DNA of 64,000 bases from Cloacibacterium normanense. GTDB lineage: Bacteria; Bacteroidota; Bacteroidia; Flavobacteriales; Weeksellaceae. The notes under the pieces are model-generated. The model made no database searches. It worked only from the letters and a program-made list of their open reading frames with translations, and was not told where the DNA came from. The stretch lies in the NCBI RefSeq assembly GCF_002943105.1, contig NZ_PTPZ01000009.1:1-64000 (forward strand), in the 5' to 3' direction. The position numbers and the translations under genes were made by a program. Positions 5,517 to 33,880 of this stretch are shown here, one piece after another (positions within the stretch are counted from its first letter, which is position 1; the number at the start of each line of letters is the position of its first letter).

Positions 5517-5551
5517 GATGGATATTGGAAGTTAGATGATGGATGTTTAGA
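5517..5551. repeat. Heptamer array A (lptB to adenosyltransferase gap)
   Basis: Five consecutive 7-nt units, including GATGGAT (twice), ATTGGAA and GTTAGAT, fill almost the whole gap and overlap the lptB stop codon. The units differ but the 7-nt register is strict. It is the same kind of array as at 6297-6338 and other sites. Confidence 0.6.
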
Positions 5552-6275
5552 ATTTTTCAAATCTAAAATTCTCACCCAAATAAGCTTGTCTTACTTGTGG
5601 ATCATTAGCTAAATCTTCTGGAACACCTTCTTTTAAGATGTTTCCTTCGAACATGATGTAGGTTTTATTGGTAATCGCCAAAGTTTGTTGTACGTTGTGG
5701 TCGGTTATCAAAACACCGATGTCTTTTTTCACCAAACTTCTAATGATTTTCTGAATATCTTCCACAGCAATTGGGTCTACTCCTGCAAAAGGTTCGTCAA
5801 GAAGAATAAAATCTGGGTCTGTTGCGAGACATCGCGCGATTTCGGTTCTACGTCTTTCACCACCTGAAAGTAAATCTCCACGGTTTTTGCGAACGTGTTC
5901 TAAAGAAAATTCTTCGATGAGTTCATTGGTTCTGCGGATTTGCTCTTCTTTGGATTTATTTGTGAGTTGTAAAACGCCTAAAATATTATCTTCTACCGAC
6001 AGCTTTCTAAAAACAGAAGCTTCCTGAGCCAAATAACCAATTCCTTTTTGCGCACGTTTATACATGGCATCATTGGTAATATCTTTTCCGTCAAGCGTAA
6101 TTTTGCCAGAAGTAGGTTTTACCAATCCCACAATCATATAGAAAGTAGTGGTTTTTCCCGCACCATTTGGCCCGAGTAAACCTACAATTTCTCCTTTTTT
6201 TACTTCTACGGAAACGCCTTTTACTACTTTTTTAGGTCCGTATTCTTTAATTAAATTTTCGCCACGTAAAATCAT
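5547..6275 (-). CDS. lptB: LPS export ABC transporter ATPase LptB
   Basis: 242 residues. ATPase of the LptB2FG complex that pulls lipopolysaccharide from the inner membrane. Walker A is GPNGAGKTT (35-43). The family-typical stretch after it includes [24 protein letters not shown] and LSVEDNI; the signature is LSGGERRR, Walker [14 protein letters not shown], and the H-loop ITDHNV. The length is normal for LptB. The permease genes are not in this window. Confidence 0.93.
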
Positions 6276-6296
6276 AGAGACAAAGATATGAAAAAA

Positions 6297-6338
6297 GTCA
6301 GAAGTATGAAGTTGGAAGTCGGAAGTCGGAAGTCTTAA
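6297..6338 (+). repeat. Heptamer array B (upstream of lptB)
   Basis: Six consecutive heptamers in strict register, each starting GT and most ending GAA (for example GTATGAA, GTTGGAA and GTCGGAA twice). The array lies just upstream of the lptB start, in the 310-bp gap between lptB and hemB. Confidence 0.75.
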
Positions 6339-6383
6339 AATTGCAAATCTTAAGTTAAAAAAATGGAAGTTTTCAAATTACGA

Positions 6384-6429
6384 AACCCTTTCTGCGTTTT
6401 TTGTATGTGCATAAAACGCAGAAAGGGTT
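6384..6429. repeat. Perfect 17-bp inverted repeat
   Basis: Arms AACCCTTTCTGCGTTTT (6384-6400) and its exact complement (6413-6429) flank a 12-nt loop. Neither side has a clear T-run directly after the stem, so it is not a textbook terminator, although the plus strand is T-rich after a gap. Function unknown. Confidence 0.6.
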
Positions 6430-6483
6430 GGTTATATTTTTTTCTGTAAGTTATTTTTAGAAAAATAGGTTCTAAAAATCCCT

Positions 6484-6590
6484 GAACTTGCGCCCCAGAT
6501 TGAGCGGCATGTTTGAGCTCTTTTTTCTGCGGCGGCTTCGCCGCTGCAGAAAAAAAGCGAGTAGCGAAAGCTGGAATTTGGCGCCCTATT
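6484..6590. repeat. REP-like intergenic element, copy 2, possible hemB terminator
   Basis: Long hairpin 6521-6556 (TTTTTTCTGC arm, GCGGC inner stem, TTC loop, one G-U pair) framed by T6 and A6, followed by GCGAGTAGCG and GGAATTTGGCGCCC. It has the same plan as 1425-1570. It directly follows the hemB stop and, with its T6 tract, can also end hemB transcription. Together with array B and the 17-bp inverted repeat it accounts for most of the 6276-6585 gap. Confidence 0.6.
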
Positions 6591-7578
6591 GATTTAAAAG
6601 AATAGCAGCTTCTTTGGCAGCATAAGTAAAAATCATATCTGCACCAGCTCTTTTAATACAAGTAAGGCTTTCTATAATGGCTTTATCATTATCTAACCAA
6701 CCGTTTTGAGCAGCCGCTTTCAGCATTGCGTATTCTCCGCTTACATTATAAACTGCGATGGGTAAATCTATTTCCTGACGAACTTTTGCAACGATATCTA
6801 AATACGGAAGACCCGGTTTTATCATAATAATGTCTGCACCTTCTTCGATGTCTTTGTACACTTCATTTAAGGCCTCTCTAGAATTATGAAAATCCATTTG
6901 GTAAGTCTTTTTATCTTTTGGAATTTCCTGAAAATCTTTCGGAGCAGAATCTAATGCACTTCTGAAAGGTCCGTAAAATGAACTTGCATATTTTGCAGCG
7001 TAGCTCAAAATTCCTACGTTGGTATGACCTGTTTCTTCTAAAGCTTGACGAATTGCAGCAACTCTACCATCCATCATATCACTTGGCGCCACAACATCTG
7101 CACCTGCTTCTGCGTGAGAAACAGACATTCTTGCCAAAGCATCATTAGTCGCATCATTGTCTACTTGTCCGTTGGTAATAATTCCGTCGTGACCATAGAT
7201 TGAATAAGGGTCTAATGCAACATCTGGCATTACAATCATTTCTGGAATAGCATTTTTAATTTCTCTGATGGTTCTTTGCATCAAACCATGCGGATTCCAA
7301 GCTTCGGTTCCGAGATTGTCTTTTAAATTTTCTGGAACTTTCATATAAATATTAACCGCTTTCACTCCCAGTGAAAGAAGTTCTTTACATTCTTTCACCG
7401 TTAAATCTACTGTTCTGCGGAAAATTCCCGGCATTGATGGAATAGCTTCCTGTGCGTTTTCGCCTTCCATTACGAACATTGGCATTACAAAATCATTGGT
7501 AGTGAGTACTGTTTCTCTCACAAGACTTCTGATACTTTCGTTAGTACGTAATCTTCTATTTCTTGAAAAAATTATCAT
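6586..7578 (-). CDS. hemB: Porphobilinogen synthase (delta-aminolevulinate dehydratase)
   Basis: 330 residues. Condenses two 5-aminolevulinate molecules to porphobilinogen in haem synthesis. Both Schiff-base lysines are in their usual contexts, SYAAKYASSFYGPFR (about 195-209) and MIKPGLPYLD (about 250-259). The metal-site segment reads DVALDPYSIYGHDG, with aspartates instead of the three cysteines of zinc enzymes, so the enzyme should be the magnesium-type. ATG start at 7578, with a TAAATTTG box at 7608-7615. Confidence 0.95.
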   Translation of the reverse strand: MIIFSRNRRLRTNESIRSLVRETVLTTNDFVMPMFVMEGENAQEAIPSMPGIFRRTVDLTVKECKELLSLGVKAVNIYMKVPENLKDNLGTEAWNPHGLMQRTIREIKNAIPEMIVMPDVALDPYSIYGHDGIITNGQVDNDATNDALARMSVSHAEAGADVVAPSDMMDGRVAAIRQALEETGHTNVGILSYAAKYASSFYGPFRSALDSAPKDFQEIPKDKKTYQMDFHNSREALNEVYKDIEEGADIIMIKPGLPYLDIVAKVRQEIDLPIAVYNVSGEYAMLKAAAQNGWLDNDKAIIESLTCIKRAGADMIFTYAAKEAAILLNQ

Positions 7579-7607
7579 TTTTGGAACAAAGTTTGTTTTA
7601 TACGCTG

Positions 7608-7615
7608 CAAATTTA
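7608..7615 (-). promoter_or_regulatory. -7 box of hemB
   Basis: TAAATTTG on the minus strand, 29 nt before the hemB ATG, within the 115-bp divergent region shared with the small T9SS protein. Confidence 0.5.
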
Positions 7616-7629
7616 GTTATTTATAACTA

Positions 7630-7660
7630 TTGTGTATATCAATTCGTTTAAATAAATTTG
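7630..7660 (+). promoter_or_regulatory. Promoter of the small T9SS-sorted protein
   Basis: TTG (7630-7632), 20-nt spacer, TAAATTTG (7653-7660): both elements of the Bacteroidota housekeeping promoter with near-ideal spacing, 33 nt before the ATG at 7694. Confidence 0.6.
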
Positions 7661-7693
7661 TATATTCTTTGAGATAAGAATGAATTAAGTAAA

Positions 7694-8053
7694 ATGAAAA
7701 GAACTTTATATTTTATATTATTTTCGGTAGGTTTATTAATGTTTTCGGGCGAAGCAAAAGCTCAACAAACATTAAGAGAGCCGCTTTCTGATTCTCAAAA
7801 ATCTGATGATGGAGTTTTAGTCGCTTATCCTAATCCTACAAGAGATTTTATCATTGTAAAAGCTAAAAACCCAATGCTAAAGGTAAAATCCGTAACTTTT
7901 TACTCTATTATCGGGACTCAAGTTTCAGAAACCATGGTAAACATGAACACCGCCGAAATTAGATTAGACAAACTGAAACCTGGCAAATATTTAATGAAAT
8001 ACACTTTGTCAGACAATACCCAAAAGGTAACGCAAGTGGTAAAACAGCAATAA
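7694..8053 (+). CDS. Small T9SS type A sorting-domain protein
   Basis: 119 residues. Residues 1-23 form a Sec signal peptide (hydrophobic run, then GEAKA before QQ). From about residue 42 to the end is a T9SS type A C-terminal domain, recognised by VAYPNPTRDFIIVKA, VTFYSIIGTQV and LKPGKYLMKYTLSDN...TQVVKQ. Only about 20 residues lie between signal and sorting domain, so there is almost no cargo. It should be exported by Sec, then routed through the T9SS to the cell surface, where the domain is usually cleaved. It may be a remnant of a longer protein or a genuine stand-alone sorting domain. Confidence 0.85.
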   Translation: MKRTLYFILFSVGLLMFSGEAKAQQTLREPLSDSQKSDDGVLVAYPNPTRDFIIVKAKNPMLKVKSVTFYSIIGTQVSETMVNMNTAEIRLDKLKPGKYLMKYTLSDNTQKVTQVVKQQ

Positions 8054-8075
8054 TTTTTTTTAATCATAAAAAAGA

Positions 8076-8100
8076 AAAACCATCGAAGTTCGATGGTTTT
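8076..8100. terminator. Bidirectional terminator between convergent genes
   Basis: Hairpin AAAACCATCGAA / TTCGATGGTTTT with a 1-nt centre and A/T tracts on both sides, between the T9SS protein (plus) and deoC (minus). Confidence 0.8.
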
Positions 8101-8123
8101 TTATTTTTGGAAATTTCTAAAGA

Positions 8124-8867
8124 TTAGTAACCTCCAGAAACTTCTTCGTTTTTTATTAATGCTTTTGCAGAAGATGTTCCTATTCTTTTTACGCCTAGGT
8201 TAATCATATATTCTGCTTCTTCTGGTGTTCTTACACCACCTGCAGCTTTTACAGGAAGTGAACCTGCGTTTTCTAGCATGATTTTAATTCCTTCTACAGT
8301 TGCTCCATTTGGTTTTCCGCCTTCTGTTTGGTAGAAACCTGTAGATGATTTCACAAATATTCTGTGTAAATCTTCTGTTTTGAAATTTTCTTCAGCCCAA
8401 GTTGAGATTTTTTTGGTAATATCTGCAATTTGCTCATCGGTAAGCGCTGCGATTTCTATAATCCATTTTGCGATTTTACCGTTATCTAAGCAAAGTTTTG
8501 TACAATCTACAAATTCTGATTTCACAGCATCTACTTCACCATTTTTGTACGCTTCATAATTGATTACGAAATCTAATTCATCTACTCCATCTTCGATTGC
8601 TTTTTGAGCTTCAGCTAATTTATGTTCTTTAGAATAAGTTCCTTCGTGGAAACCGATTACAGTACCGATTACTACGTTAGAATTTTGCTCTGTAAGGAAT
8701 TGCTTCATTTTTTTAACGTAATCAGGTCTTATCATTACTGCAAAAATGTCATTTTCGATGGCTTCTTTGGCAAGATTAATTACCGTTTCTAGCGTTTGTT
8801 CTTCGGTAAGACCAGATTGAGCTGGAGTTTTTAGATAAGTAGAATCTAAATAAGTGTTGATTTTCAT
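8124..8867 (-). CDS. deoC: Deoxyribose-phosphate aldolase
   Basis: 247 residues. Cleaves 2-deoxyribose 5-phosphate to glyceraldehyde 3-phosphate and acetaldehyde in deoxynucleoside catabolism. Motifs: an N-terminal LDSTYLK stretch, GTVIGFHEGT, ELDFVINYEAYKNGE, KWIIEIAALT, then FVKSSTGF with the Schiff-base lysine (about 173), VKAAGGVRTPEEA and IGTSSA. The protein ends SGGY; a conserved C-terminal tyrosine is catalytic in characterised aldolases. It lies 4 bases after an Lrp/AsnC regulator gene and is co-transcribed with it. Confidence 0.93.
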   Translation of the reverse strand: MKINTYLDSTYLKTPAQSGLTEEQTLETVINLAKEAIENDIFAVMIRPDYVKKMKQFLTEQNSNVVIGTVIGFHEGTYSKEHKLAEAQKAIEDGVDELDFVINYEAYKNGEVDAVKSEFVDCTKLCLDNGKIAKWIIEIAALTDEQIADITKKISTWAEENFKTEDLHRIFVKSSTGFYQTEGGKPNGATVEGIKIMLENAGSLPVKAAGGVRTPEEAEYMINLGVKRIGTSSAKALIKNEEVSGGY

Positions 8868-8871
8868 AATG

Positions 8872-9342
8872 TTACACTTTTAATTGTCTGTTAATACTTT
8901 GCTCCAAAGATATGAAAGTTTCTGTTCTTGTGACGCCTTTTAGCTTCTGTATTTTGCTTAAAATTTGCATGAGATGATCATTATCAATACAAAGTACTTT
9001 AAGGAAAACCGTCCAGTTTCCTGTAGTATAATGAGCTTCTACGATTTCATTAATTTCGTTCAGAGATTTAATCAGTTCTTGGAAATGACTTGGTTGATCC
9101 ATGTAAACGCCGATGTAAGAAACTACTTTGTAACCTATTTTTCTTGGATTAAGAAAAGATACAGAATTTTCTATTACGCCTGCGGTTTCTAGTTTTTTTA
9201 TTCTCTGATGTACAGCAGTGGTAGAAATACCAATGTTTTTAGAAATTTGAGCCAAAGATGTTTTGGCATTGTCCATGAGCATATAGATTATTTTTTTATC
9301 TATTGCATCTAGCTTGTAACCTACTTCTGTAACGCTTTTCAT
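8872..9342 (-). CDS. Lrp/AsnC family transcriptional regulator
   Basis: 156 residues. Winged helix-turn-helix at about 10-60 (LDAIDKKIIYMLMDNAKTSLAQISKNIGISTTAVHQRIKKLETAGVI split over helix, turn and recognition helix), then an AsnC-type ligand-binding ferredoxin fold (about 70-150) with YIGVYMD, VEAHYTTGNWTVFLKVLC and a C-terminal ISLE strand. Such proteins respond to amino acids. It sits directly upstream of deoC and 7 bases after the endonuclease-family gene, so the three form an operon. Its target is unknown. Confidence 0.9.
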   Translation of the reverse strand: MKSVTEVGYKLDAIDKKIIYMLMDNAKTSLAQISKNIGISTTAVHQRIKKLETAGVIENSVSFLNPRKIGYKVVSYIGVYMDQPSHFQELIKSLNEINEIVEAHYTTGNWTVFLKVLCIDNDHLMQILSKIQKLKGVTRTETFISLEQSINRQLKV

Positions 9343-9349
9343 TTTTAAT

Positions 9350-10306
9350 TTAATTGTCTTTTGTTTCTAAAATTGTATAAACGGGATAATGATCGCTATA
9401 CCCACCAAGATATCTGGTTCCTGCAAAAGTTCTAAAAGGTCTTCCTTTAAACTTTTTGTCCCAATTACTTAATTTTTCTGAATTAAAGACTACAGCACTT
9501 TTAAATGCTAATGAAGAAATAGGCAAAAAGAAATGATTAGAAAATAGAATCTGATCGAACAACAGTCCTTGATTGTAGTGAAACGTAGAATAGATTTTAT
9601 TATTGTATAATTCTATGTATGGATTCACTAAGATTTTATCAACTCCATTGTCATATAATAAATTATTTAGATTTTCTTCAATCGGGTCATCGTTAAAATC
9701 TCCACAAATTATTACGGGTTCTTCTTTTTCTAATAATGTAAGAACTCTTTCTTTAATTGAATGAAGAATGTAATCTCTTTTGGGTTTGTTTACATCTTTT
9801 TCTCTTTTTGAAGGAAGATGTGCCACAAAAACATTTAGCAATTCATCATTGTATTTCAATTTACAAAAAAGAACATCTCTGGTTGTATCATAATACTCAT
9901 CTTGCTCTTCATTCACTCCTTCGAAAATAAAAGAAATGGCTTCAGAATCTACTAATTCTATTTTTCTCTTATCATACAGAAGCGCTGTATCTACGCCTCT
10001 TTCATCTAAAGAATTATAATGAACAAAATCATAATTTTGAAGGGGCTCTTGTTGAATCAAGTCTTGTAAAACCTCTTCATTATTCACTTCACATAAACCT
10101 ACAATCATCGGAAGCACCTCTTCTTTTTCTTCGATTAGCCTAAAAACATTGGCAATTTTTCGAAGTTTATTCTGATACTTTCTTTCGTCCCAATTCCTTA
10201 ATCCAGAAATGGTAGGATCTAAAAAATGTGTTGGTTTAGGGTCTGGAGAAAACAAGTTTTCTACATTATAGAACATGACAAGTTCTTTTTTCAAAAAATT
10301 CTCCAT
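9350..10306 (-). CDS. Endonuclease/exonuclease/phosphatase family protein
   Basis: 318 residues with no signal peptide. Metal-dependent phosphodiesterase fold: FYNVENLF near the N-terminus (about 12-19), GLCEVNN with the metal glutamate (about 70), RGVDTALLYDK, VFVAHLPSKREKDV, ICGDFNDDP (about 200-208) and the C-terminal GYSDHYPV histidine. The substrate could be nucleic acid or a small phosphodiester; the sequence does not decide. First gene of the Lrp-deoC operon; a TAAATTTA box lies upstream. Confidence 0.85.
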   Translation of the reverse strand: MENFLKKELVMFYNVENLFSPDPKPTHFLDPTISGLRNWDERKYQNKLRKIANVFRLIEEKEEVLPMIVGLCEVNNEEVLQDLIQQEPLQNYDFVHYNSLDERGVDTALLYDKRKIELVDSEAISFIFEGVNEEQDEYYDTTRDVLFCKLKYNDELLNVFVAHLPSKREKDVNKPKRDYILHSIKERVLTLLEKEEPVIICGDFNDDPIEENLNNLLYDNGVDKILVNPYIELYNNKIYSTFHYNQGLLFDQILFSNHFFLPISSLAFKSAVVFNSEKLSNWDKKFKGRPFRTFAGTRYLGGYSDHYPVYTILETKDN

Positions 10307-10359
10307 AGCCTTGCCTCAATTTTTCGGATTGTAAATTTAGTAAAAATAATTTATTATGA

Positions 10360-11040
10360 TTAGAAATCTTTTAATAAATCTGGTCTTTTCTGCTGTGTAA
10401 TTTCTATTGCTTTCTGATGTCTCCATTCTTCAATTTTCCCAAAATTACCGCTTAAAAGTATTTCTGGAACTCGCATTCCTTTGTAAACCTCTGGTTTGGT
10501 ATAAATAGGCGGAGAAAGCAAATCATCTTGAAAACTATCCGTCAAAGCAGATTGTTCATCATTTAAAACGCCTGGCAAAAGACGAATAATCGCATCAGCA
10601 AGTACACAAGCTGCCAGTTCGCCACCAGTTAGCACAAAATCACCAATCGAAATCTCTCTGGTAATGTGTAAATCTCTAATTCTTTGGTCTATTCCTTTGT
10701 AATGACCACAAAGCAGAATTAAATTTTTCTTCAGCGAGTAAGAATTCGCTATTTTTTGGTTAAAAGTTTCTCCATCTGGAGTTAAGTAAATAACATCATC
10801 ATACTCTCTCTCAGCTTTTAACTGAGAAATACATAAATCTAATGGTTCACACATCATCACCATTCCAGCGCCACCACCATAAACTGTATCATCTATTTGA
10901 CGATGTTTGTTAAATGCAAAATCACGAACATTATGAAAATGAACTTCTGCCAAACCTTTTTCCATTGCTCTTTTCAAGATGGAAGTTTTGAAAGGACTTT
11001 CTAATAAATCAGGAACTGCACTTATAATATCTATTCTCAT
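10360..11040 (-). CDS. trmD: tRNA (guanine-37-N1)-methyltransferase
   Basis: 226 residues. Methylates G37 next to the anticodon using S-adenosylmethionine. Shows the SPOUT trefoil-knot motifs [15 protein letters not shown] (about 53-67), [15 protein letters not shown] (about 111-125) and [19 protein letters not shown] (about 130-148), and the C-terminal [22 protein letters not shown]. The ATG overlaps the stop of the NADH dehydrogenase gene (ATGA), so the two are translationally coupled. Confidence 0.96.
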
Positions 11041-12302
11041 TGTTCGGTTTTATTTTTTTTATTTGGGATGATGATTAAGCGAAGCGAAGAATCTCTATTA
11101 ATGTAACTCCACATCCAATTGAAGAAAATGGCGAGTTTATTTCTTACACTTAAAATCAACATTAAATGAAGAAACATCCAAAAATACCACGCAAAAATCC
11201 CTTGAAATTTAAATTTTGGCAAATCTACTACTGCTCTATGCTTCCCAATGGTTGCCATGCTTCCTTTGTCATCATATTCGTAAGGTTGCCATTCATTCTC
11301 TGATTTTTTCAAGAAATTTTTAGCCAAATTTTTTCCTTGATTAATCGCTACATTCGCCACTTGAGGATGACCATTTGGATATTTTGGGGTTTCCATGTAG
11401 GCAATATCTCCTATCGCATAAATATCATCAAATCCTACTATTTTATTATATCGGTCTACGATGTACCTATTGTTTTTAATGGAATTTTCGGTTAATCCTT
11501 CAATAATATTCCCAGTTACACCTGCTGCCCAAATCACATTATTGCTCGGAATGATATTCCCAGAACTTAGATAAACTCTATCACCATCATAATCTGTCAC
11601 CCTATCGTTTGAGATAAATCTCACGCCCAAATCTTTCAAATATTTTTCTGATTTTCCTTGAGATTCTTCGCTCATTACCGCCAAAGGTTTTTCGGTAGAA
11701 CTCACCAAAATAATTTCTAAATCATCAAAATTCATTCTAGGATAATCTCTCGGCAAGATTTCTCTTTTCATTTCGGCAAAAGCACCAGCCAATTCCACAC
11801 CAGTTGGTCCGGAACCTACGATTACGATGTTCCAATTGCCATCATCACTTCTGCTTTTTTCAATAATTAATTTTTCGAAAGTAAGCAAAACATGGTTTCT
11901 TATAGAAATCGCTTCCTGAGTATTTTTCATCCCAAAAGCCAGATTTTCCATTTTTTGATTTCCAAAGAAATTCGTTTTACAGCCAGTTGCAATCACCAAT
12001 TTATCATAGTGAAAAACATGGTCTTCTGTAATAATTTTATTTTCCGAAGGAATAATCTGTTTCACTTCCGTCATTCTAAATTGAATATTTTTAGAACGCT
12101 GAAAAATCTTTCTAAACGGAAACGAAATATTAGAAGGCTCAATTCTTCCGCAAGCTACTTGATAAAATAACGGTTGAAACATATGATGATTCGCTTTGTC
12201 AATCATCACCAATTTCTTGGTACGATTGCCATTAAGTTTTTTAGCGAATTGCAATCCTGCAAAACCACCACCGATGACGATTATTTTATCTCTAATTTCC
12301 AT
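11037..12302 (-). CDS. ndh: Type II NADH dehydrogenase (NDH-2)
   Basis: 421 residues. Single-subunit flavoprotein passing electrons from NADH to quinone without pumping protons. FAD Rossmann motif [12 protein letters not shown] (about 8-19), NAD Rossmann motif [18 protein letters not shown] (about 161-178), second FAD motif [12 protein letters not shown], and [11 protein letters not shown] near the quinone site. A hydrophobic C-terminal stretch ([15 protein letters not shown], about 375-390) would anchor it to the membrane. Its stop overlaps trmD. TAATTTTG promoter box at 12313-12320. Confidence 0.9.
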
Positions 12303-12312
12303 AAGATTCTGG

Positions 12313-12351
12313 CAAAATTACTGAATTTATTTTCTAAAAATTTTACTTTTG
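12313..12351. promoter_or_regulatory. Overlapping divergent promoters of ndh and the GH25 gene
   Basis: Minus-strand TAATTTTG (12313-12320) serves ndh; plus-strand TACTTTTG (12344-12351) serves the muramidase gene, whose ATG starts 9 bases later. The -33 region of each falls near the -7 box of the other, so the two are likely mutually exclusive. Confidence 0.55.
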
Positions 12352-12359
12352 CAAAACTT

Positions 12360-13223
12360 ATGTCAAAAACCAATCCAAAAGCCACCAAAAGAAAAAAAAT
12401 CCATAAAACCAGACGAAAAAATTATCTTTTTCGCAGATATATTTTGTTGGCTATTTTAGGATTAACCTTGCTAGGAACTGGGCTTTACCTCAGAGACAAA
12501 GTGGCATTTTATTACGCCATGTATTTTGAGAAATTTGTACATAAAAATTTAAAAAATTCGGAAGAAGAAACCGCAAGAATCAATAAAATCGTCACTGAAT
12601 ATAATGACAAAATTTTCGGTTTCGATATTTCTCATTATCAGCACAAACGAGACATAAAATGGGACAGCCTTACCATTGCCAATGGTTCAATACCATTAGA
12701 ATTTGTAATTATGAGGGCGACTATGGGAAATCGAAAAAAAGATAAACATTTTGATGATTTTTGGGAATTAGCCAAAGAAAATAATCTTACAAGAGGTGCT
12801 TATCATTTTTATCGTGCAGACGAAGACCCTATTTTACAAGCTAATAATTTCTTAGAAAGTGTACATTTAGAAAGCGGAGATTTACGACCTGTTTTAGACA
12901 TCGAAAGAATTCCCAGAAGAAAATCTAAGGAAAAATTGATAGAAGACTTGAAGGTTTGGTGTAAAATTATAGAAGAAAAATATTGTGAAAAGCCAATTAT
13001 CTATACTTATTACCATTACTACAAAGATTATTTGCGTGGCGAGTTTGACGATTATCCACTTTGGCTAGCCAACTACAATGATGTTTTAGTTCCGTCGGAA
13101 GAAGACTCATGGAAAATGTGGCAATTCACGGAAAAAGGCATTGTAAAAGGAATTAATGTAAAAGTTGACCTTAATATTTATAATGGAAATTCTTGGAGTT
13201 TCAGCGAATTAAAACTTGATTAA
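12360..13223 (+). CDS. Membrane-anchored GH25 muramidase (lysozyme)
   Basis: 287 residues from the ATG at 12360. The frame stays open further upstream, but that part overlaps ndh on the other strand and precedes the promoter box. A basic N-terminus (1-26) and one membrane helix (about 27-44) are followed by a GH25 domain with FDISHYQ (88-94), IMRATMG, GAYHFYR (146-152) and PVLDIE (177-182), which hold the catalytic aspartate and glutamate of the family. It should cleave the MurNAc-GlcNAc bond of peptidoglycan while facing the periplasm. HopJ-family gene follows after 11 bases. Confidence 0.85.
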   Translation: MSKTNPKATKRKKIHKTRRKNYLFRRYILLAILGLTLLGTGLYLRDKVAFYYAMYFEKFVHKNLKNSEEETARINKIVTEYNDKIFGFDISHYQHKRDIKWDSLTIANGSIPLEFVIMRATMGNRKKDKHFDDFWELAKENNLTRGAYHFYRADEDPILQANNFLESVHLESGDLRPVLDIERIPRRKSKEKLIEDLKVWCKIIEEKYCEKPIIYTYYHYYKDYLRGEFDDYPLWLANYNDVLVPSEEDSWKMWQFTEKGIVKGINVKVDLNIYNGNSWSFSELKLD

Positions 13224-13234
13224 AGAAAAATAAA

Positions 13235-13567
13235 ATGATAGTAGAACAATTAAAAAACACACCAGAAGAATTGGTTTTCAGCAACGTAATTGCTTATATA
13301 GATGAATATTACGAATTCACACCCTCTAAATTCACCAATGGAAATACGGTAAATGAAGCCAATCAAAATAATGGCTCTTGCAAAGTTTTCAGTTTTGCCA
13401 AAATCAACCAACTTTCTCCAGAAGAGACGCTTTTATTATTTAGCGAGTTTTACAGAGAAGACGTTTTGAAAAATCCAGAAGGAACAGACCATCAAAATAT
13501 CAGAAATTTCATGAAATTTGGCTGGGAAGGAATTGTTTTCGAAGGAGAAGCTTTGAAGAAAAAATAA
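13235..13567 (+). CDS. HopJ-family protein (PF08888 type)
   Basis: 110 residues. Matches the conserved pattern FTNGNTVNEANQNNGSCKVF (about 38-57), then LFSEFYREDVLKNPEGTDHQNIRNFMKFGWEGIVF (split about 70-104). The family is named after a Pseudomonas type III effector but is common in free-living bacteria with no type III system, and none is seen here. Its biochemical role is unknown. It lies 11 bases after the muramidase gene on the same strand. Confidence 0.8.
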   Translation: MIVEQLKNTPEELVFSNVIAYIDEYYEFTPSKFTNGNTVNEANQNNGSCKVFSFAKINQLSPEETLLLFSEFYREDVLKNPEGTDHQNIRNFMKFGWEGIVFEGEALKKK

Positions 13568-13647
13568 ATCTTTTCACAATAAAATTTATTCCCATTTCAT
13601 TTTTTGTACTTTCGCAATCTCAACCTTAACCTTTTCCTCAACCTAAC

Positions 13648-15534
13648 ATGAACTACGTTTCCGCAGAAAATCTGACCAAATCTTATTGCATCAAAACGCT
13701 TTTTAAAAATATTTCTTTCCATATCAATGAAGGAGACAAAATTGCGATTGTCGCCAAAAACGGCACTGGAAAATCTACGCTTTTGAAAATCCTTTTAGGA
13801 AAAGAAATTGCAGATTCTGGCGAAGTAGTGATTAATAAAGATGTTCAGGTAGTTTTGTTCGACCAAGAAATTGAGTTTGACTCTCAACTTTCTGTGGAAG
13901 AATTTATGATGACACTCGATTCTAAGCCTATTCAAGCGCTTAAAAATTATCACAAATCGCTTCATTCTACTGACCAAAAATTCATAGAAAAAGCTTTGGC
14001 AGAAATGGAAATTCACAAAGCTTGGGATTTAGAAACCGAAATGAAACAAATTCTTTCGCAACTAAAAATCACCAATTTAGAGGCGAAGATGGGCACACTT
14101 TCTGGAGGACAAATCAAAAGAGTTGCCCTTGCAAAACTCCTTACCGAAACCAGAGCAGAACACAGACACGTCTTGCTGATTATGGACGAACCTACCAATC
14201 ACTTAGACGTAGAAATGGTAGAATGGTTAGAAAATTACCTTTCTAAAACCATGATTACGTTGCTTTTGGTAACGCACGACCGTTATTTTCTGGATTCAGT
14301 TTGCGACACGGTTTGGGAAATGGAAGACCAAAATCTCTATGTTCATAACGGAAGTTATGCGACTTATCTGGAAAACAAGATGATTCGTGAAGATAATCTG
14401 AACGCTACGATTGACAAAGCCAACAATCTTTACCGAAAAGAATTAGAATGGATGCGCCGTCAACCAAAAGCGAGAACCACCAAATCAAAATCTAGAATTG
14501 ATGCGTTCTACGACACCGAAAAAGTAGCAAAAACCAATACCAAAAAGCAATCTCTGGAACTCGATTTTGAAATGAAAAGATTGGGAAAAAAGATTTTGGA
14601 GCTCAAAAATATCAATAAAAGTTATGGAGATTTGGTTTTGCTCAAAGATTTTTCATATTCATTTCAGCGAGGCGAAAAAGTAGGAATTGTAGGAAAAAAT
14701 GGAGCAGGAAAATCTACACTTCTCAATATTATTCAAGGTTTAGAGCCCAAAAATTCTGGCGAAATAGAAACAGGAGAAACCATCAAATTTGGGTATTTTT
14801 CGCAAAAAGGTTTGCAATATAACGAGGAAGAAAGAGTAATAGATTTCATCAAAAATATTTCTGAAAATTTCCCTTTAGCCAACGGAAGAACCATTTCTGC
14901 ATCGCAGTTTTTAAGAATTTTCTTATTTGACGACCAAACGCAATATTCGCCGATTTCTAAACTTTCTGGCGGAGAAAAACGAAGATTACACTTAATGTAT
15001 GTGTTGTATCAAAATCCTAACTTTTTGATTTTTGATGAACCTACCAATGATTTAGACTTGCCAACATTGACGGTTTTAGAAAACTTTTTACAGAATTTCG
15101 CAGGTTGTCTCATCATCGTTTCTCACGACCGTTATTTTATGGATAGAATTGTAGACCATGTTTTGGCGTTTGAAGGTGATGGAAAAATCAAAGATTTTGT
15201 TGGGAATTTTTCGGAATTTAGAGAATGGAAAAAGACTGAAATCGGAAGTCCAAAGTCTGACACTTCGACTCCGCTCAGTGTGACAAACCAACAACCAACA
15301 ACCAACAACCAGCAACCAAAAAAGAAACTCTCTTTCAAAGAACAGCGCGAACTCGAAACGATAGAAAAAGAAATGCCAGAATTAGAGAAAAAACGTTCTG
15401 AAATTCTAGAAAAACTAAATAATGAAGCTGATTATGAGAAAATCGCAACACTTTCTGCTGAGTTGGAAAAAGTTTCCGAAAAACTAGAAGAATACGAGAT
15501 GCGTTGGCTAGAATTACAGGAAATTCTAAATTAA
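13648..15534 (+). CDS. uup: ABC-F family ATPase, Uup type
   Basis: 628 residues, no membrane helices. Two ABC cassettes: Walker A AKNGTGKST (36-44), signature LSGGQIKR, Walker B LLIMDEPTNHLD; then GKNGAGKST (about 348), LSGGEKRR and FLIFDEPTNDLD. A lysine/arginine-rich linker lies between them and a coiled coil (about 565-628) at the C-terminus, the Uup layout. ABC-F proteins act on ribosomes or DNA branch structures. Residues about 532-558, between cassette 2 and the coiled coil, are encoded by repetitive DNA (15241-15322). The gene converges with the helicase gene, with a 4-base overlap. Confidence 0.88.
   Translation: MNYVSAENLTKSYCIKTLFKNISFHINEGDKIAIVAKNGTGKSTLLKILLGKEIADSGEVVINKDVQVVLFDQEIEFDSQLSVEEFMMTLDSKPIQALKNYHKSLHSTDQKFIEKALAEMEIHKAWDLETEMKQILSQLKITNLEAKMGTLSGGQIKRVALAKLLTETRAEHRHVLLIMDEPTNHLDVEMVEWLENYLSKTMITLLLVTHDRYFLDSVCDTVWEMEDQNLYVHNGSYATYLENKMIREDNLNATIDKANNLYRKELEWMRRQPKARTTKSKSRIDAFYDTEKVAKTNTKKQSLELDFEMKRLGKKILELKNINKSYGDLVLLKDFSYSFQRGEKVGIVGKNGAGKSTLLNIIQGLEPKNSGEIETGETIKFGYFSQKGLQYNEEERVIDFIKNISENFPLANGRTISASQFLRIFLFDDQTQYSPISKLSGGEKRRLHLMYVLYQNPNFLIFDEPTNDLDLPTLTVLENFLQNFAGCLIIVSHDRYFMDRIVDHVLAFEGDGKIKDFVGNFSEFREWKKTEIGSPKSDTSTPLSVTNQQPTTNNQQPKKKLSFKEQRELETIEKEMPELEKKRSEILEKLNNEADYEKIATLSAELEKVSEKLEEYEMRWLELQEILN
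15241..15322 (+). repeat. Composite repeat inside the ABC-F gene (array C)
   Basis: Three heptamers (ATCGGAA, GTCCAAA, GTCTGAC), a 27-nt block built around CTTCGACTCCGCTCAGTG (15259-15285), then CCAACAA three times, CCAGCAA and a degenerate unit (15288-15322). Similar CTTCGACTCCGCTCAGTG blocks are, as far as I recall, frequent between genes in Bacteroidota. Here the block is translated in frame as a Ser/Thr/Asn/Gln/Pro-rich linker. Confidence 0.75.
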
Positions 15535-17663: not shown

Positions 17664-17671
17664 TCTAGGCT

Positions 17672-17679
17672 CAAAAATA
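17672..17679 (-). promoter_or_regulatory. -7 box of the helicase gene
   Basis: TATTTTTG on the minus strand, 8 nt before the ATG, predicting a very short or absent leader. Confidence 0.5.
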
Positions 17680-17809
17680 GTGAAAAAAAATCAAGATGTG
17701 ATGATTTGAGAATTTAGCATTCTGAAGATTTTAAATCTAATTTTTCAAAATTATTGATGTAAAAAATGGAGAAAGATTTAACGATATATAAAAACTATCA
17801 AGTTAATAG

Positions 17810-17854: not shown

Positions 17855-17879
17855 CACCAGAATTTTTAAGAGATATCCT

Positions 17880-19584: not shown

Positions 19585-19617
19585 AAAAAGCCTGATTCTC
19601 CACGAGTCAGGCTTTTG
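19584..19617. terminator. Bidirectional terminator between norB-like and acetyltransferase genes
   Basis: AAAAAGCCTGA / TCAGGCTTTT stem with A-rich and T-rich flanks, between convergent genes. Confidence 0.8.
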
Positions 19618-21803: not shown

Positions 21804-21855
21804 GTTTTTAGTGGATAGTTGTCAGTTGATAGTATTTACACTGATAACTTTCGAT
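21804..21855. repeat. Heptamer array D upstream of hemH
   Basis: Five plus-strand heptamers in register, each beginning GT and ending A (GTGGATA, GTTGTCA and GTTGATA among them), followed at once by three heptamers in the opposite orientation (GTGTAAA, GTTATCA, ATCGAAA read on the minus strand). GTTGTCAGTTG here is complementary at 10 of 11 positions to part of the array at 21883-21910, so a hairpin across the hemH start is possible. Confidence 0.7.
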
Positions 21856-21875: not shown

Positions 21876-22919
21876 TTGAATACCAACAACCAACAACCGA
21901 CAACCAACAACATAAAAAAAGGAATACTCCTCGTAAATCTTGGTTCGCCGAAATCTACAAAAGTAGAAGACGTAAAAGAATATCTAGATGAATTCTTGAT
22001 GGACGAACGTGTGATAGACTATCCATGGTTCTTTAGAGCGCTTTTAGTAAAAGGAATTATCCTCAATACTCGCCCTAAAAAGTCTGCGGCAGCTTACAAA
22101 ACCGTTTGGACAGATGAAGGTTCGCCATTGATTGTCATCACGAAACAGATTCAACAAAAATTGCAGAAATTAGTGGATATTCCTGTAGAAATTGGGATGA
22201 GATACGCTGAACCAAGCATAGAAACCGGAATCAGAAACTTGGTAGAAAAAGGCGTAGAAGAAATAGTTCTTTTCCCGCTTTATCCTCAATATGCGATGAG
22301 TACTACAGAAACTGTAGTTGAAAAAGCGAAAGAAGTTCAAGCGAAATTTTTTCCAAATATCAAAATCAATTATGTAAAACCTTTCTATAATAGAGACCTT
22401 TACATCAATTGTTTGGCTGAAAGCATTAAAGAAAAATTGCCAGAAAATTTGGATTTGCTTCAGTTTTCGTATCATGGAGTTCCAGAAAGACATATTTACA
22501 AAACAGACCCTACCAAAACTTGTAAAATAGGCGATTGTTGCTTCAAAGAAGATCATCCTTCACATCAATATTGCTATAGACACCAATGTCTGAAAACTAC
22601 TGAACTGGTAAGACAAAAATTAGGTTTGGAAGACAGCCAAGTGAAATCTACTTTCCAATCTAGATTAGGAAAAGACAAATGGATAGAGCCTTACACAGAT
22701 GAAACTTTAGAAAATTTACCTAAAAATGGCGTGAAAAACCTAGCGATTGTTTGTCCAGCTTTTGTAAGCGATTGTTTAGAAACCTTAGAAGAGATTTCTG
22801 TAGAAGGAAAAGAAGAATTTTTACATGCAGGTGGAGAAAACTTCCACTACGTTCCTTGCCTTAACGACGAAGATAGATGGATAGAAGTCGTAAAACAACT
22901 TTGCGAAGAAGAATTATAA
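21876..22919 (+). CDS. hemH: Ferrochelatase with repeat-encoded N-terminus
   Basis: Up to 347 residues. Inserts Fe2+ into protoporphyrin IX in the last step of haem synthesis. Conserved parts are GILLVNLGSP, VEDVKEYLDEFLMDERVID, GMRYAEPSIE, LFPLYPQYAMSTTE, FSYHGVPERH (catalytic histidine) and SRLGKDKWIEPYT. A cysteine-rich insert (CKIGDCCF...HQC, about 205-230) is also seen. The start is unusual: where relatives begin MKKGILL, this gene has ATA AAA AAA GGA, preceded by four CCAACAA-type heptamers that stay in frame. The nearest accepted start is TTG at 21876. Real initiation may be at TTG or at the ATA (21912). Confidence 0.9.
   Translation: MNTNNQQPTTNNIKKGILLVNLGSPKSTKVEDVKEYLDEFLMDERVIDYPWFFRALLVKGIILNTRPKKSAAAYKTVWTDEGSPLIVITKQIQQKLQKLVDIPVEIGMRYAEPSIETGIRNLVEKGVEEIVLFPLYPQYAMSTTETVVEKAKEVQAKFFPNIKINYVKPFYNRDLYINCLAESIKEKLPENLDLLQFSYHGVPERHIYKTDPTKTCKIGDCCFKEDHPSHQYCYRHQCLKTTELVRQKLGLEDSQVKSTFQSRLGKDKWIEPYTDETLENLPKNGVKNLAIVCPAFVSDCLETLEEISVEGKEEFLHAGGENFHYVPCLNDEDRWIEVVKQLCEEEL
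21883..21910 (-). repeat. Heptamer array E at the hemH 5' end
   Basis: Four CCAACAA-type heptamers (one reads CCGACAA), orientated so that the GT-first unit is GTTGTTG on the minus strand. It sits between the TTG at 21876 and the codon where other ferrochelatases begin. Confidence 0.8.
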
Positions 22920-27575: not shown

Positions 27576-28133
27576 TTAAGGATTTACAGAATCCAAAAAC
27601 TGATGCACAGACTCAGAATTCCAATCTTTTGCAGCATCTTCTTTCATCAAAATCCTTCCATTTTTGCCCAAAATAAAAGTCGTAGGAAATACTTTTGGCA
27701 GCATTTTTTCAGAAAGTGGCGATGTAGCAAAATAAACCGGCGTAGTATAATTGTTATCTGTTAAGAATTTTTTCACTTTTTCTTCTTCATCTTGCATGGC
27801 AATCAGCACGAAAGCCACTTTATTTTTTTTGGCCTCGTATAATTTTTGAATACTCGGATATTCTGCTCTACAAGGTGGACACCAACTTCCCCAAAAATTT
27901 AAGAAAACGACTTTGTCCTTAAAATCTGCCAAATTCGCATCAGGAACATTCACTCCTTTCAGTTGAATATTCATTTCCTCAGCTGTAAAAGTGACATCTT
28001 TTTCTACTTTTTCTAAAGAAGGTTTCATCAAAATTTGTCGCTGAACAAACGCTCTAAAATCTGGAAACAAAAACATAGAAACCAGAAACACCGAAAGCAA
28101 TAATGTGAGCCAGTTTTTTCTTAAAAAGTTCAT
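27576..28133 (-). CDS. TlpA-like membrane-anchored thiol-disulfide oxidoreductase
   Basis: 185 residues. One N-terminal membrane helix (about 7-24), then a periplasmic thioredoxin domain with FLNFWGSWCPPCRAEYPSI (WCPPC at about 84-88), FVLIAMQDEEEKVKKFL and the cis-proline context PKVFPTTFILGKNGRI. WCPPC enzymes of this group reduce apocytochromes or other exported proteins, which would fit the cytochrome c encoded in this window, but no direct link is shown. Confidence 0.87.
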   Translation of the reverse strand: MNFLRKNWLTLLLSVFLVSMFLFPDFRAFVQRQILMKPSLEKVEKDVTFTAEEMNIQLKGVNVPDANLADFKDKVVFLNFWGSWCPPCRAEYPSIQKLYEAKKNKVAFVLIAMQDEEEKVKKFLTDNNYTTPVYFATSPLSEKMLPKVFPTTFILGKNGRILMKEDAAKDWNSESVHQFLDSVNP

Positions 28134-28138
28134 AAATT

Positions 28139-28178
28139 GATGTGTTGATGTGATAATTTGTTGATGTGATAATATTTA
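28139..28178. repeat. Octamer array F
   Basis: Units of 8 nt in register, GATGTGTT, GATGTGAT (twice) and AATTTGTT, then a decayed unit, directly upstream of the TlpA-like gene start. It resembles the heptamer arrays but with a period of eight. Confidence 0.6.
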
Positions 28179-28183
28179 TTTTT

Positions 28184-28232
28184 ACACCCCGACTTCGCTT
28201 TGCGAAGCCACCCCTCTAAAAGAGGGGAACTC
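28184..28232. repeat. CACCCC-type intergenic element
   Basis: CACCCCGACTTCGC, a short TTCGC/GCGAA hairpin, then CCCCTCT/AGAGGGG hairpin. Such CACCCC...CCCCTC...GAGGGG blocks recur, as far as I recall, between flavobacterial genes. It follows the octamer array and can fold into two stems downstream of the WCGDA thioredoxin-like gene. Confidence 0.5.
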
Positions 28233-28238
28233 TTCTAA

Positions 28239-29888: not shown

Positions 29889-29957
29889 GAGTGAGGTGCG
29901 AAGTGCGAGTTGTAAGATTTTTATAACATAAGAACTTGTATCACGTAACTCGTATCA
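29889..29957. repeat. Inverted heptamer arrays G between aroC and a membrane protein gene
   Basis: Plus-strand units including GTGCGAA and GTGCGAG (29889-29916), then, after about 17 bases, units in the opposite orientation (GATACGA, GTTACGT, GATACAA on the minus strand, about 29934-29957) running up to the stop of the neighbouring gene. Confidence 0.6.
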
Positions 29958-32125: not shown

Positions 32126-32139
32126 CTGAAAAATTGGGA

Positions 32140-32167
32140 GTTTCGGGATACGAGTTACAAGTAAAAA
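32140..32167 (+). repeat. Heptamer array H between nadA and folB
   Basis: Four units in register: GTTTCGG, GATACGA, GTTACAA, GTAAAAA. GATACGA also occurs in array G. Confidence 0.55.
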
Positions 32168-32186
32168 CTCATATCTATTTTTATTT

Positions 32187-33203
32187 TTATTTAATTGTTT
32201 TACTTAATTCAAGCATGGCTTCAATAGGTTTCAAAGCTTTTAAGCGAAGTTCTTCGTCCATTGTGATTTCTGGCAATTCATACTTCATGCACAAATACAA
32301 CTTTTCTAGAGTATTTCTCTTCATGAAGAAACATTCTGAACAGTTGCAACTTTCGTCAAAAACCAAAGCCGGAATCAATTCTTTATGAGGAGCACGTTTT
32401 TTCATTTCGTGAAGAATTCCTTCTTCTGTAGCGATGATAAACTTCTGACAATCATCTTTTTCCACATAATTTAGCAAAGCTGAGGTAGAACCAATAAAAT
32501 GCGCCAATTCTAACACTGGAGTTTCAGATTCTGGGTGTGCAATCAATTTAGCATCAGGATTTTCTGCCAATTGTTTTGCAATTCTTTCCATAGAAAATGC
32601 TTCGTGAACGATGCAACTTCCGTCCCACAAAATCATGTCTCTTCCCGTTTTTTTCATCAAATATCTTCCCAAATTTTTATCTGGCGCGAAAATAATCGGT
32701 TGATCTTTTGGCAATGCATTGATAATAGTTTCTGCATTAGAACTGGTGACAATAATATCAGATTCTGCCTTAGTTTCTGCATTACAATTAATATAAGTTG
32801 CCACCAAAGCTCCAGGATGCTGTTCACGCATTTTTCTAAGACCTTCTCCACTGCAACCATCTGCAAGTGAACAACCTGCCAAAGTATCTGGAAGAACTAC
32901 TTTTTTTGTAGGATTAAGGATTTTTGCAGCTTCAGCCATAAAATGTACCCCACAAAAAGCAATCATATCTGCATCTGTATCTTTTGCAGCTCTGGCTAAT
33001 TGTAGAGAATCTCCCAAATAATCTGCAATATCTTGAATTTCTCCTGGCTGATAATAATGCGCTAAAATCACGGCATTTTTTTCTTTTTTGAGCTTTAAAA
33101 TCGCATCAATTAAATCTTGACCTTGAGGAATTTGAATATCTTTCAAATCCAAAAATCCTTTTACAGGAAGGTTATTTTTTGCTATATCTAATGCTTGTTC
33201 CAT
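32187..33203 (-). CDS. nadA: Quinolinate synthase
   Basis: 338 residues from the ATG at 33203; a TTG at 33239 would overlap gmk and adds nothing conserved. Condenses iminoaspartate with dihydroxyacetone phosphate to quinolinate for NAD synthesis. Conserved: [63 protein letters not shown], and [10 protein letters not shown] near the C-terminus; three cysteines ligate the [4Fe-4S] cluster. It follows gmk closely and is probably co-transcribed. Confidence 0.94.
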
Positions 33204-33228
33204 TGGGTAATCGTATTTGGTGTTGGTT

Positions 33229-33792
33229 TTATTCTTCAATAAAATTTCTTACAATTCGCTCAATTTCTTTCTGAGCGGTTTCTAAATCATCATTAATGAT
33301 AATTTGGTCAAATTCTTCAGCATACGTCATTTCTTCTTTAGCTTTTGCTACTCTGGTTTTGATGGTTTCTAAATCATCTGTAGCTCTAGATATCAATCTT
33401 CGTTCCAATTCATCAATAGAAGGTGGTGCAATAAAAATAGAAAGGGCATTTTCTCCGAAAATTTTCTTCAGATTTACGCCACCTTTTACATCAACATCGA
33501 AAATAACCACTTTTCCTTCTTGCCAAATTCTTTCCACTTCAGATTTTAAGGTTCCGTAAAATTTATCTTGATAAACTTCTTCATATTCTACAAAAGCATC
33601 TTCTGCAATCAGATTTTTAAATTCTTCAACTGAAAGAAAAAAATAGTCTTTCCCATGAATTTCCTCACCTCTCAATGCTCTAGTTGTAGCAGAAATAGAA
33701 AATTGTAGTTCAGGAAAAATGCCTAAACAATATTTTACCAAAGTGGTTTTTCCACTTCCTGAAGGTGCTGAAAATATAATTACTTTGTTCAT
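33229..33792 (-). CDS. gmk: Guanylate kinase
   Basis: 187 residues. Phosphorylates GMP to GDP with ATP. P-loop [13 protein letters not shown] (7-19), then the GMP-binding segment [24 protein letters not shown] (split about 32-55), [19 protein letters not shown] and [18 protein letters not shown]. Lies downstream of yicC across a repeat-filled gap and upstream of nadA. In many bacteria yicC and gmk are neighbours, as here. Confidence 0.96.
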
Positions 33793-33800
33793 TTTTAATA

Positions 33801-33880
33801 GTTATGAGTGATGAATTATGAATGATGAGTTATTTAAAGACTAAAAAACAACTTATAACTCATGACTTATAACTCATCAT
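33801..33880. repeat. Convergent heptamer arrays I between yicC and gmk
   Basis: Plus-strand units GTTATGA, GTGATGA, ATTATGA, ATGATGA (33801-33828), then minus-strand units ATGATGA, GTTATAA, GTCATGA, GTTATAA (33853-33880). The two halves are complementary over ATGATGAGTTAT and can form a stem with a roughly 25-40 nt loop. They fill the whole 87-bp gap. Confidence 0.75.

What the first reader, a model, noticed from the sequence alone, without database searches (positions are those of the whole stretch)
5517..33880. A class of degenerate heptamer arrays with fixed 7-nt period but variable unit sequence
At least nine intergenic or junction sites (5517-5551, 6297-6338, 15241-15322, 21804-21855, 21883-21910, 29889-29957, 32140-32167, 33801-33880; an 8-nt version at 28139-28178) hold 3-8 tandem units that stay in strict 7-nt register while the unit differs between sites and within arrays. 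Most units start with GT and many end GAA, GATA, ATGA or ATAA. Arrays often come as inverted pairs facing each other. Ordinary microsatellites keep the unit and vary the number; here the period and the GT anchor are kept while the rest drifts. Three units make 21 bp, two helical turns, so a phased protein-binding or a templated-synthesis origin are both conceivable. I do not know of a described mechanism.
Basis: partly seen in the sequence, partly recalled or inferred. Interest (0 to 1): 0.75.

Follow-up and report, generated by a model that had tools for sequence, protein, structure and literature searches.

The report
Heptamer hairpin repeats between operon genes
Short spacers between neighbouring genes in this Cloacibacterium genome often hold drifting 7-letter repeats, many as two arrays facing each other, much like heptamer repeats known from cyanobacteria; at one well-studied spot the 7-letter rhythm persists across species while the letters change.

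Summary
The window is Cloacibacterium (Weeksellaceae). Period-7 segments are about 7-fold over shuffled expectation in intergenic DNA (39 vs 5.4), and are found without the window too (30 in 280 gaps). Periods 4-6 and 10-13 show no clear excess in the own genome; 8 (and 9 in some relatives) a small one. Arrays share a weak anchor, GAWNTYR, in Cloacibacterium, not shown in other genera. They lie in co-directional gaps (72 of 535), rarely in convergent ones (1 of 91), close to stop and start codons. Many gaps hold two facing arrays. At the yicC-gmk gap (61 sequences) lag-7 identity is 0.51 and the two arms match their own partner better than other species' arms, also among 12 representatives under 60% identical. 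Close relatives can differ in unit family at one slot inside ~95% identical flanks. This is a Bacteroidota counterpart of cyanobacterial STRR heptamers and of the Nostoc trnL P6b heptamer stem: a new variant of a known kind. Most likely 7-nt slippage plus replacement in permissive operon gaps; a selected RNA stem remains possible, though two RNA-level tests did not support it.

The parts
5517..5546 (-). Degenerate heptamer array filling the 36-nt gap between the ABC-type ATPase gene (lptB-like) and the next gene's start
   Evidence: lag-7 score 8, shuffle fraction 0.03; scores 11-14 in G001, G002, G003, G005, G006 and 0 in G004
6295..6334 (-). Heptamer array (AAGTYGG / CCGACTT type) 19 nt before the start of the lptB-like gene
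   Evidence: arrays with other units in G002, G003, G005; none detected in G006 and G004
15241..15327 (+). Array (AACCAAC type) behind a REP-like palindrome, in frame inside an ABC-F-like gene (Pfam ABC_tran x2, ABC_tran_CTD)
   Evidence: nearly the same in G001, G002, G006; different sequence in G003 (96 instead of 90 nt)
21804..21830 (+). Array just after the stop of the NifU-like gene (facing pair, first arm)
   Evidence: same in G001 and G002, other sequence in G003, G006, G004
21882..21911 (+). Array (ACCAACA) before the ferrochelatase gene (facing pair, second arm)
   Evidence: the exact start codon of that gene was not settled
28139..28178 (-). 8-nt-period array (TTGATGTG) before the start of the gene at 27576-28133
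   Evidence: same in G002 and G003, a shorter form in G006, a different hairpin in G001 and G005
29889..29954 (-). Two facing heptamer arrays upstream of aroC (chorismate synthase)
   Evidence: G006 has a 54-nt gap with an 8-nt unit, G004 a 194-nt gap of other sequence
32140..32167 (-). Short heptamer array upstream of the folB-like gene
   Evidence: score 7, shuffle fraction 0.012; the gap differs (172 to 7603 nt) in all six relatives compared
33801..33833 (-). yicC-gmk slot, array next to the gmk start
33843..33877 (-). yicC-gmk slot, facing array next to the yicC stop
51497..51527 (-). rplL-rpoB spacer cassette, read by eye as two heptamers (AAGATTA AAGACTA) facing two (TCTTCGC TCTTAAC); longer, or of another unit family, in relatives at the same spot
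   Evidence: (score 8)

Best explanation
These are STRR-class heptamer repeats of Weeksellaceae: short spacers in co-directional gene runs whose ends carry 7-nt arrays, often as a facing pair that could form a stem-loop. Shown: 7-nt period, weak shared anchor in Cloacibacterium, preference for co-directional gaps and for positions near gene ends, arm-to-arm match at the yicC-gmk slot, different unit families at the same slot in close relatives. Inferred: arrays grow and shrink by slippage in 7-nt steps; new unit families arrive by regrowth from a few bases, by copying from another locus, or by recombination between lineages; the second arm stays complementary through copying across the hairpin (quasi-palindrome correction) and because operon-internal gaps tolerate it, no terminator or promoter being damaged. 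The stem-loop may affect the mRNA mildly, but no sequence-specific reader is needed.
For: Period 7 with its multiple 14 strongly in excess in three Cloacibacterium sets (39 vs 5.4, 24 vs 3.6, 33 vs 4.6). Neighbouring units more alike than in unit-permuted arrays (0.76 vs 0.71, 0.78 vs 0.74, 0.78 vs 0.73 in the three sets), third neighbours not. Length differences own vs G002 are multiples of 7 in 4 of 11 changed array gaps vs 2 of 38 changed other gaps (Fisher 0.018), though only one of the four (258 vs 237 nt) is a plain change inside one unit family. Identity under 0.7 in 5 of 19 array gaps vs 8 of 96 others (Fisher 0.039), flank identity 96.8 vs 96.5; in three of the five both genomes have arrays, of different units. 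Arm match at yicC-gmk 10.8 vs 7.1 +- 0.33 permuted (61 sequences), 10.1 vs 6.6 +- 0.66 (12 representatives). The rplL-rpoB flank of G003 resembles G004/G005 beyond the cassette, as recombination predicts. One-arm tracts and one near-full-length facing pair of the same unit family (75% identical over 60 of 70 nt) occur at unrelated loci.
Against: Slippage alone does not explain persistence at yicC-gmk (score 8 or more in 40 of 55 loci, 12 or more in 18; periods 6 and 8 in 0 and 1), nor the constant polarity there (first half G>C in 46, C>G in 4; second half C>G in 55 of 55); this suggests some selection or deep inheritance. The rank test on identity gives only P 0.054. Arm copying was not observed. 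In non-homologous array gaps the arm match is clear in one set (z 4.9), moderate in own (2.9), weak in G002 (1.4), and non-array gaps also give z 3.2, 2.0, 1.0 with smaller effects. Some arrays are long and one-sided, e.g. (CATAACT)15.
Confidence: 0.52

Rival explanations
1. Selected intercistronic RNA stem-loop: the arm after the stop codon pairs with the arm before the next start codon, hiding the start until a ribosome finishing the upstream gene opens the stem (translational coupling), or marking a processing or stability site. Only pairing matters, so sequence is free.
For: In the three Cloacibacterium sets arrays begin a median 1-3 nt after stops and end a median 5-19 nt before starts, each array being assigned to its nearer end. 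Co-directional 72 of 535, convergent 1 of 91, divergent 9 of 106 over three overlapping sets; own alone 27 of 209, 1 of 44, 2 of 51 (Fisher co vs convergent 1e-4 pooled, co vs divergent 0.20 pooled, co vs all others 0.007 in own). Arms co-vary at yicC-gmk. Median folding z in own is lower with arrays (-2.00 vs -0.78) and the share of bases paired across the gap is higher in all three sets (0.29, 0.24, 0.43 vs 0.22, 0.20, 0.19). Transcript stability or translation coupling was suggested for cyanobacterial STRR hairpins (PMC2670836, passage seen).
Against: The fraction of array gaps with folding z below -2 is higher than other gaps only in own (0.47 vs 0.33), lower in the two others (0.20 vs 0.36, 0.20 vs 0.33), and their median z hardly differs (-1.19 vs -0.90, -1.08 vs -1.06; 17, 10 and 10 array gaps, 12 shuffles each). 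G-U mismatches in the sense strand are not favoured (57 vs 52 expected) while A-C are (103 vs 77), which selection on sense RNA would not give. Many arrays have no partner. In the 20 stretches of other Weeksellaceae genera array gaps are few (co 5 of 171, divergent 2 of 47, convergent 0 of 36).
Confidence: 0.27
2. A dispersed element or cassette family that moves between gaps by ectopic copying (REP- or MITE-like), with a heptamer minisatellite as its body.
For: One-arm tracts 83-93% alike at several loci in own and other genomes. A facing pair at G006:C1:2323415-2323475 matches 60 of 70 nt of the G001 yicC-gmk cassette at 75%. A REP-like palindrome lies beside the coding array.
Against: No copy above 80% identity covering most of a cassette away from its own slot in the listed matches of 7 genomes (only scored candidates are listed). 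No fixed ends or target duplications were apparent by eye in the ten aligned slots.
Confidence: 0.11
3. Phased DNA-binding sites for an unknown protein that reads the anchor every 7 bp.
For: Shared anchor above null in Cloacibacterium.
Against: Anchor weak (3.7 bits over 7 positions) and absent from the small set of other genera; unit families differ at orthologous slots within the genus.
Confidence: 0.05
4. Enzymatic templated synthesis (telomerase- or retron-like) of heptamer tracts.
For: Strict 7-nt register with drifting unit is compatible.
Against: Not searched for; 8-nt variants and facing pairs are not predicted.
Confidence: 0.02

Closest known systems
Cyanobacterial STRR (short tandemly repeated repetitive) heptamers
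   Same: 7-bp units, between genes (e.g. hupS-hupL), able to form hairpins (PMC2670836, three passages seen)
   Different: Here Weeksellaceae; units drift inside arrays and differ from slot to slot; facing pairs followed across species
Nostoc trnL (tRNA-Leu UAA) intron P6b stem
   Same: Stem built on degenerate heptamers (Class I TDNGATT, Class II NNTGAGT), one class replacing the other repeatedly with similar structure (PMC4476775, abstract and passages seen); units here such as TTAGATT and TATGAGT fit those motifs by eye
   Different: One intron locus in one RNA; here many intergenic slots
TAACTGA direct repeats of Beggiatoaceae, cyanobacteria and five Bacteroidetes (MacGregor 2015)
   Same: Heptamer arrays near start codons; larger assemblages of heptamers noted in Elizabethkingia anophelis, other heptamers in Gramella and Aequorivita (PMC4679880: abstract, introduction, methods, first results sections, Cyanobacteria and Bacteroidetes sections read)
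   Different: One fixed unit was searched; facing pairs and unit exchange at orthologous gaps in Weeksellaceae do not appear in the parts read
GGGNATC / GGGGAYT repeats of Xanthomonas and Nostoc
   Same: Heterogeneous heptamer arrays in gaps, same neighbours but variable sequence between close species, some inverted pairs (PMC4692102, passages and discussion read)
   Different: G-rich quadruplex-type unit with fixed consensus

Membership tests
Heptanucleotide simple repeats / STRR | Tandem 7-nt units in excess over other periods in intergenic DNA | tested here: met
Heptanucleotide simple repeats / STRR | Capacity to form a hairpin in the gap | tested here: inconclusive
   arm match at yicC-gmk strong; general folding z mixed
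Heptanucleotide simple repeats / STRR | A few fixed units repeated genome-wide | tested here: not met
   many unit families, weak anchor only; STRR units themselves recalled, except 7-bp size and hairpins
TAACTGA repeats (MacGregor) | Exact unit TAACTGA | tested here: not met
   not seen as the unit of arrays listed (near units TAACTCA, CATAACT occur); no genome-wide count of TAACTGA was made
Intrinsic terminators | Found at 3' ends, including convergent gaps | tested here: not met
   1 of 91 convergent gaps
REP/BIME or MITE | Dispersed copies with conserved ends | tested here: inconclusive
   no fixed ends by eye; partial and one near-full-length 75% relative elsewhere
Protein-binding iterons | Bound by a cognate protein | not testable with these tools
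   needs a binding assay

The most novel reading that the evidence does not exclude
A sequence-free intercistronic element: selection keeps only a 7-nt rhythm and arm-to-arm complementarity at fixed operon slots across a family, while the letters are replaced at will, coupling expression of neighbouring genes through a stem whose register can slip in 7-nt steps.
Probability: 0.2. Interest if true: 0.75.

Novelty: new variant of a known kind. Interest (0 to 1): 0.5.

Why it matters
It gives a culturable group (Cloacibacterium, Chryseobacterium) and one slot (yicC-gmk, tens of species) in which the old puzzle of why bacterial long-unit repeats prefer 7 nt, and whether such intergenic hairpins do anything, can be tested directly. 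It also warns that comparing gaps by sequence identity alone misses a feature conserved as period and pairing.

Tried and rejected
Terminators: near-absent from convergent gaps. RNA selection: folding z mixed, wobble bias against; kept as a rival. Strand polarity as a general rule: strong at yicC-gmk; start-side arrays C>G vs G>C 11 vs 6 in own (n.s.), 10 vs 2 in G002, 22 vs 1 in other Cloacibacterium, 5 vs 0 in other genera; stop side 6 vs 11, 7 vs 6, 6 vs 6, 2 vs 2; non-array start sides lean the same way, 139 vs 77 in own; whole-gap halves in own show no bias. Not claimed as general. Slot conservation at rplL-rpoB: period-7 score 10 or more in 6 of the 33 family loci (L087 and L088 are same-genus, L095 and L108 only score 10; in 8 of the 33 no rpoB start was found and 500 nt were scored); none of the 22 order loci and 22 wider loci resolved (one unresolved in each). 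So that slot is not conserved. At yicC-gmk the three named Elizabethkingia loci L276, L277, L279 lack arrays. Taxonomic reach: other Weeksellaceae genera 12 vs 4.6, other families of the order 3 vs 1.6, other orders 1 vs 0.4, other classes 2 vs 0.4 (20, 14, 6 and 18 stretches of 20 kb, low power). Whole cassettes elsewhere; I first wrote that there were none, which rereading one search did not bear out (a 75% match over 60 of 70 nt in G006, fetched, read, is a facing pair); I lowered the main reading from 0.55 to 0.52 and raised the dispersal rival from 0.08 to 0.11 for that. Unit decay first shown was partly due to how arrays were picked; controls for that. Rfam gave six tRNAs and Flavo-1, nothing at arrays. 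Window bases 1-20000 against plasmids: no match. On print: searches (listings, top rows only where more papers held the terms) showed no description of facing heptamer pairs in Cloacibacterium or Chryseobacterium; most subscription papers are not held. Mazel 1990 (STRR) and Jackman and Mulligan 1995 (structured intergenic regions) are recalled, not seen. Gene names lptB and nadA, and the ABC-F label, are my reading; Pfam supports guanylate kinase, YicC-like, chorismate synthase, NifU-like, ferrochelatase, FolB, L7/L12 and RNA polymerase beta, and ABC domains for the other two. Searches gave side passages only.


Full report
What was checked. The nine sites are in the sequence. Scored against Markov shuffles of each site, period 7 is the best of lags 4-10 at eight sites and period 8 at 28139-28178. 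One site, 15241-15327, lies inside the gene 13648-15534, which has two ABC domains. The others lie in gaps between genes.

Is it more than chance? ORFs of 80 codons or more defined the gaps. In 325 gaps of the own genome (57.5 kb) there are 39 period-7 segments of score 12 or more against 5.4 expected and 28 of period 14 against 4.8; period 8 gives 10 against 5.6, period 9 7 against 5.6, period 12 6 against 4.8, and the rest of 4-13 are at or below expectation (earlier version, 31 vs 5.8 +- 1.8). Leaving the window out leaves 30 in 280 gaps, counted without margins. In 156 kb of coding DNA there are 5 period-7 segments against 2.0. G002 gives 24 vs 3.6 and other Cloacibacterium stretches 33 vs 4.6, the latter with period 9 at 11 vs 4.4. 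Other Weeksellaceae genera show a weaker excess (12 vs 4.6) and wider groups little at low power.

Who is it? Most of the nearest named loci at gmk are Chryseobacterium, Kaistella and Elizabethkingia.

Shared anchor. Arrays from other genera do not exceed the null.

Where they sit. Over three Cloacibacterium sets that overlap in ancestry, arrays occupy 72 of 535 co-directional, 9 of 106 divergent and 1 of 91 convergent gaps; own alone 27 of 209, 2 of 51 and 1 of 44; other genera 5 of 171, 2 of 47, 0 of 36. Co against convergent is significant, co against divergent is not. Arrays begin a median 1-3 nt after a stop or end a median 5-19 nt before a start in the Cloacibacterium sets; in the few of other genera 4 nt before a start and 41 nt after a stop. 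Near-absence from convergent gaps speaks against a general terminator role.

Facing arms. In the yicC-gmk gap of 61 sequences (59 loci plus two Cloacibacterium alleles) lag-7 identity is 0.506, lag 14 0.452, lag 21 0.382, the others from 2 to 29 between 0.257 and 0.332. The two halves match each other better than halves of other sequences: 10.8 vs 7.1 +- 0.33, no permutation of 2000 above 8.4. With 12 representatives under 60% identical: lag 7 0.507; arms 10.1 vs 6.6 +- 0.66, maximum of 2000 permutations 9.25. In non-homologous array gaps the arm match is 9.65 vs 7.26 (z 2.9) in own, 8.10 vs 6.77 (z 1.4) in G002 and 12.2 vs 7.7 (z 4.9) in other Cloacibacterium stretches; non-array gaps give smaller effects (7.70 vs 7.20, z 3.2; 7.66 vs 7.33, z 2.0; 7.46 vs 7.29, z 1.0), as ordinary hairpins would.

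Fixed slot, free letters. At yicC-gmk, own, G002, G003 and G006 carry TTATGAG/TGATGAA units in facing arrays, G001 carries GATGTTG/GAAGTTG in facing arrays, G004 TGATAAG/TGATGAA, G005 GAGTTTC with a 1025-nt gap. Of 55 loci of the relatives, 40 have a period-7 score of 8 or more, 26 of 10 or more, 18 of 12 or more; for period 6 none and for period 8 one at 8 or more; other gaps of 40-130 nt in the same loci give 30, 25 and 18 of 119, many of them a second slot just after gmk. At rplL-rpoB the spacer holds a cassette at one spot: two plus two heptamers in own (by eye), longer arms of the same family in G005, and another family in G003 and G004. In G003 the flank beyond the cassette also resembles G004/G005, which points to recombination. 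At the aroC gap G006 has an 8-nt unit where most others have 7. Own versus G002 over about 360 kb, 125 orthologous gaps: array gaps (19) have median identity 0.87 and 5 under 0.7; other gaps (96) 0.97 and 8 under 0.7 (Fisher 0.039; rank test 0.054). Of the five, three are array against array with different units.

How it most likely works. Neighbouring units are more alike than in unit-permuted arrays, third neighbours are not, and length changes are often multiples of 7 (4 of 11 vs 2 of 38, one of the four a plain change): local duplication in 7-nt steps. The literature seen reports heptamers as the commonest long-unit class and a polymerase-footprint reason for it (PMC4679880, PMC4692102). 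Units recur as one-arm tracts at many loci, and one facing pair at another G006 locus is 75% like the G001 yicC-gmk cassette over 60 of 70 nt, so copying between loci is possible. Long one-sided arrays such as (CATAACT)15 exist. I infer slippage plus replacement in gaps that tolerate it, with the second arm kept complementary by copying across the hairpin. A selected RNA stem (coupling, processing) would explain position, and polarity and persistence at yicC-gmk, but folding z is lower with arrays only in own and not in the two other sets, and mismatches do not favour G-U over A-C in the sense strand (57 vs 52 expected, 103 vs 77).

What is known. Cyanobacterial STRR heptamers form intergenic hairpins with suggested roles in transcript stability or coupling (PMC2670836, passages). 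The Nostoc trnL intron P6b stem is built on one of two heptamer classes, replaced repeatedly with similar structure (PMC4476775, abstract and passages); this is the nearest precedent. TAACTGA repeats (PMC4679880, sections read) come with notes on heptamer assemblages in Elizabethkingia and Gramella and on relatives without them. In the phylum table of PMC4060949 (passage) the 7n3 pattern is above zero for Bacteroidetes (0.75) and few others. So the class is known. The facing-pair, slot-persistent, unit-free behaviour in Weeksellaceae was not seen described in searches.

Noticed in passing
window 15258-15285: REP-like palindrome (CACTTCGACTCCGCTCAGTGTGACA; label recalled) inside an ABC-F-like coding sequence, in frame; similar-looking elements lie beside arrays in L349 and L350 (by eye).
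   Followed up: partly
window 1431-1523: Flavo-1 RNA (RF01705) on the + strand, 55.3 bits.
   Followed up: no
L349:143-220: A long 8-nt-period array (about 10 units, TTCACAAC-like) about 220 nt from a 15-unit heptamer array; period 8 appears as a minor sister class.
   Followed up: partly
L348:434-537: (CATAACT)15-like array before a gene start, no facing partner seen.
   Followed up: no
L275:3564-3685 and similar places just downstream of gmk in L268-L333: A second heptamer slot (CTAACTT/CTAATTT units) after gmk in many Chryseobacterium loci.
   Followed up: no
gap 28134-28238, G001 and G005 alleles: A different hairpin with GCTGATTTA-like 9-nt units shared by G001 and G005 but not by nearer relatives, suggesting exchange between lineages.
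   Followed up: no
window 33880-34737: The gene upstream of the best-studied slot is YicC-like, an endoribonuclease family in Pfam; whether it acts on its own downstream hairpin is an open thought.
   Followed up: no
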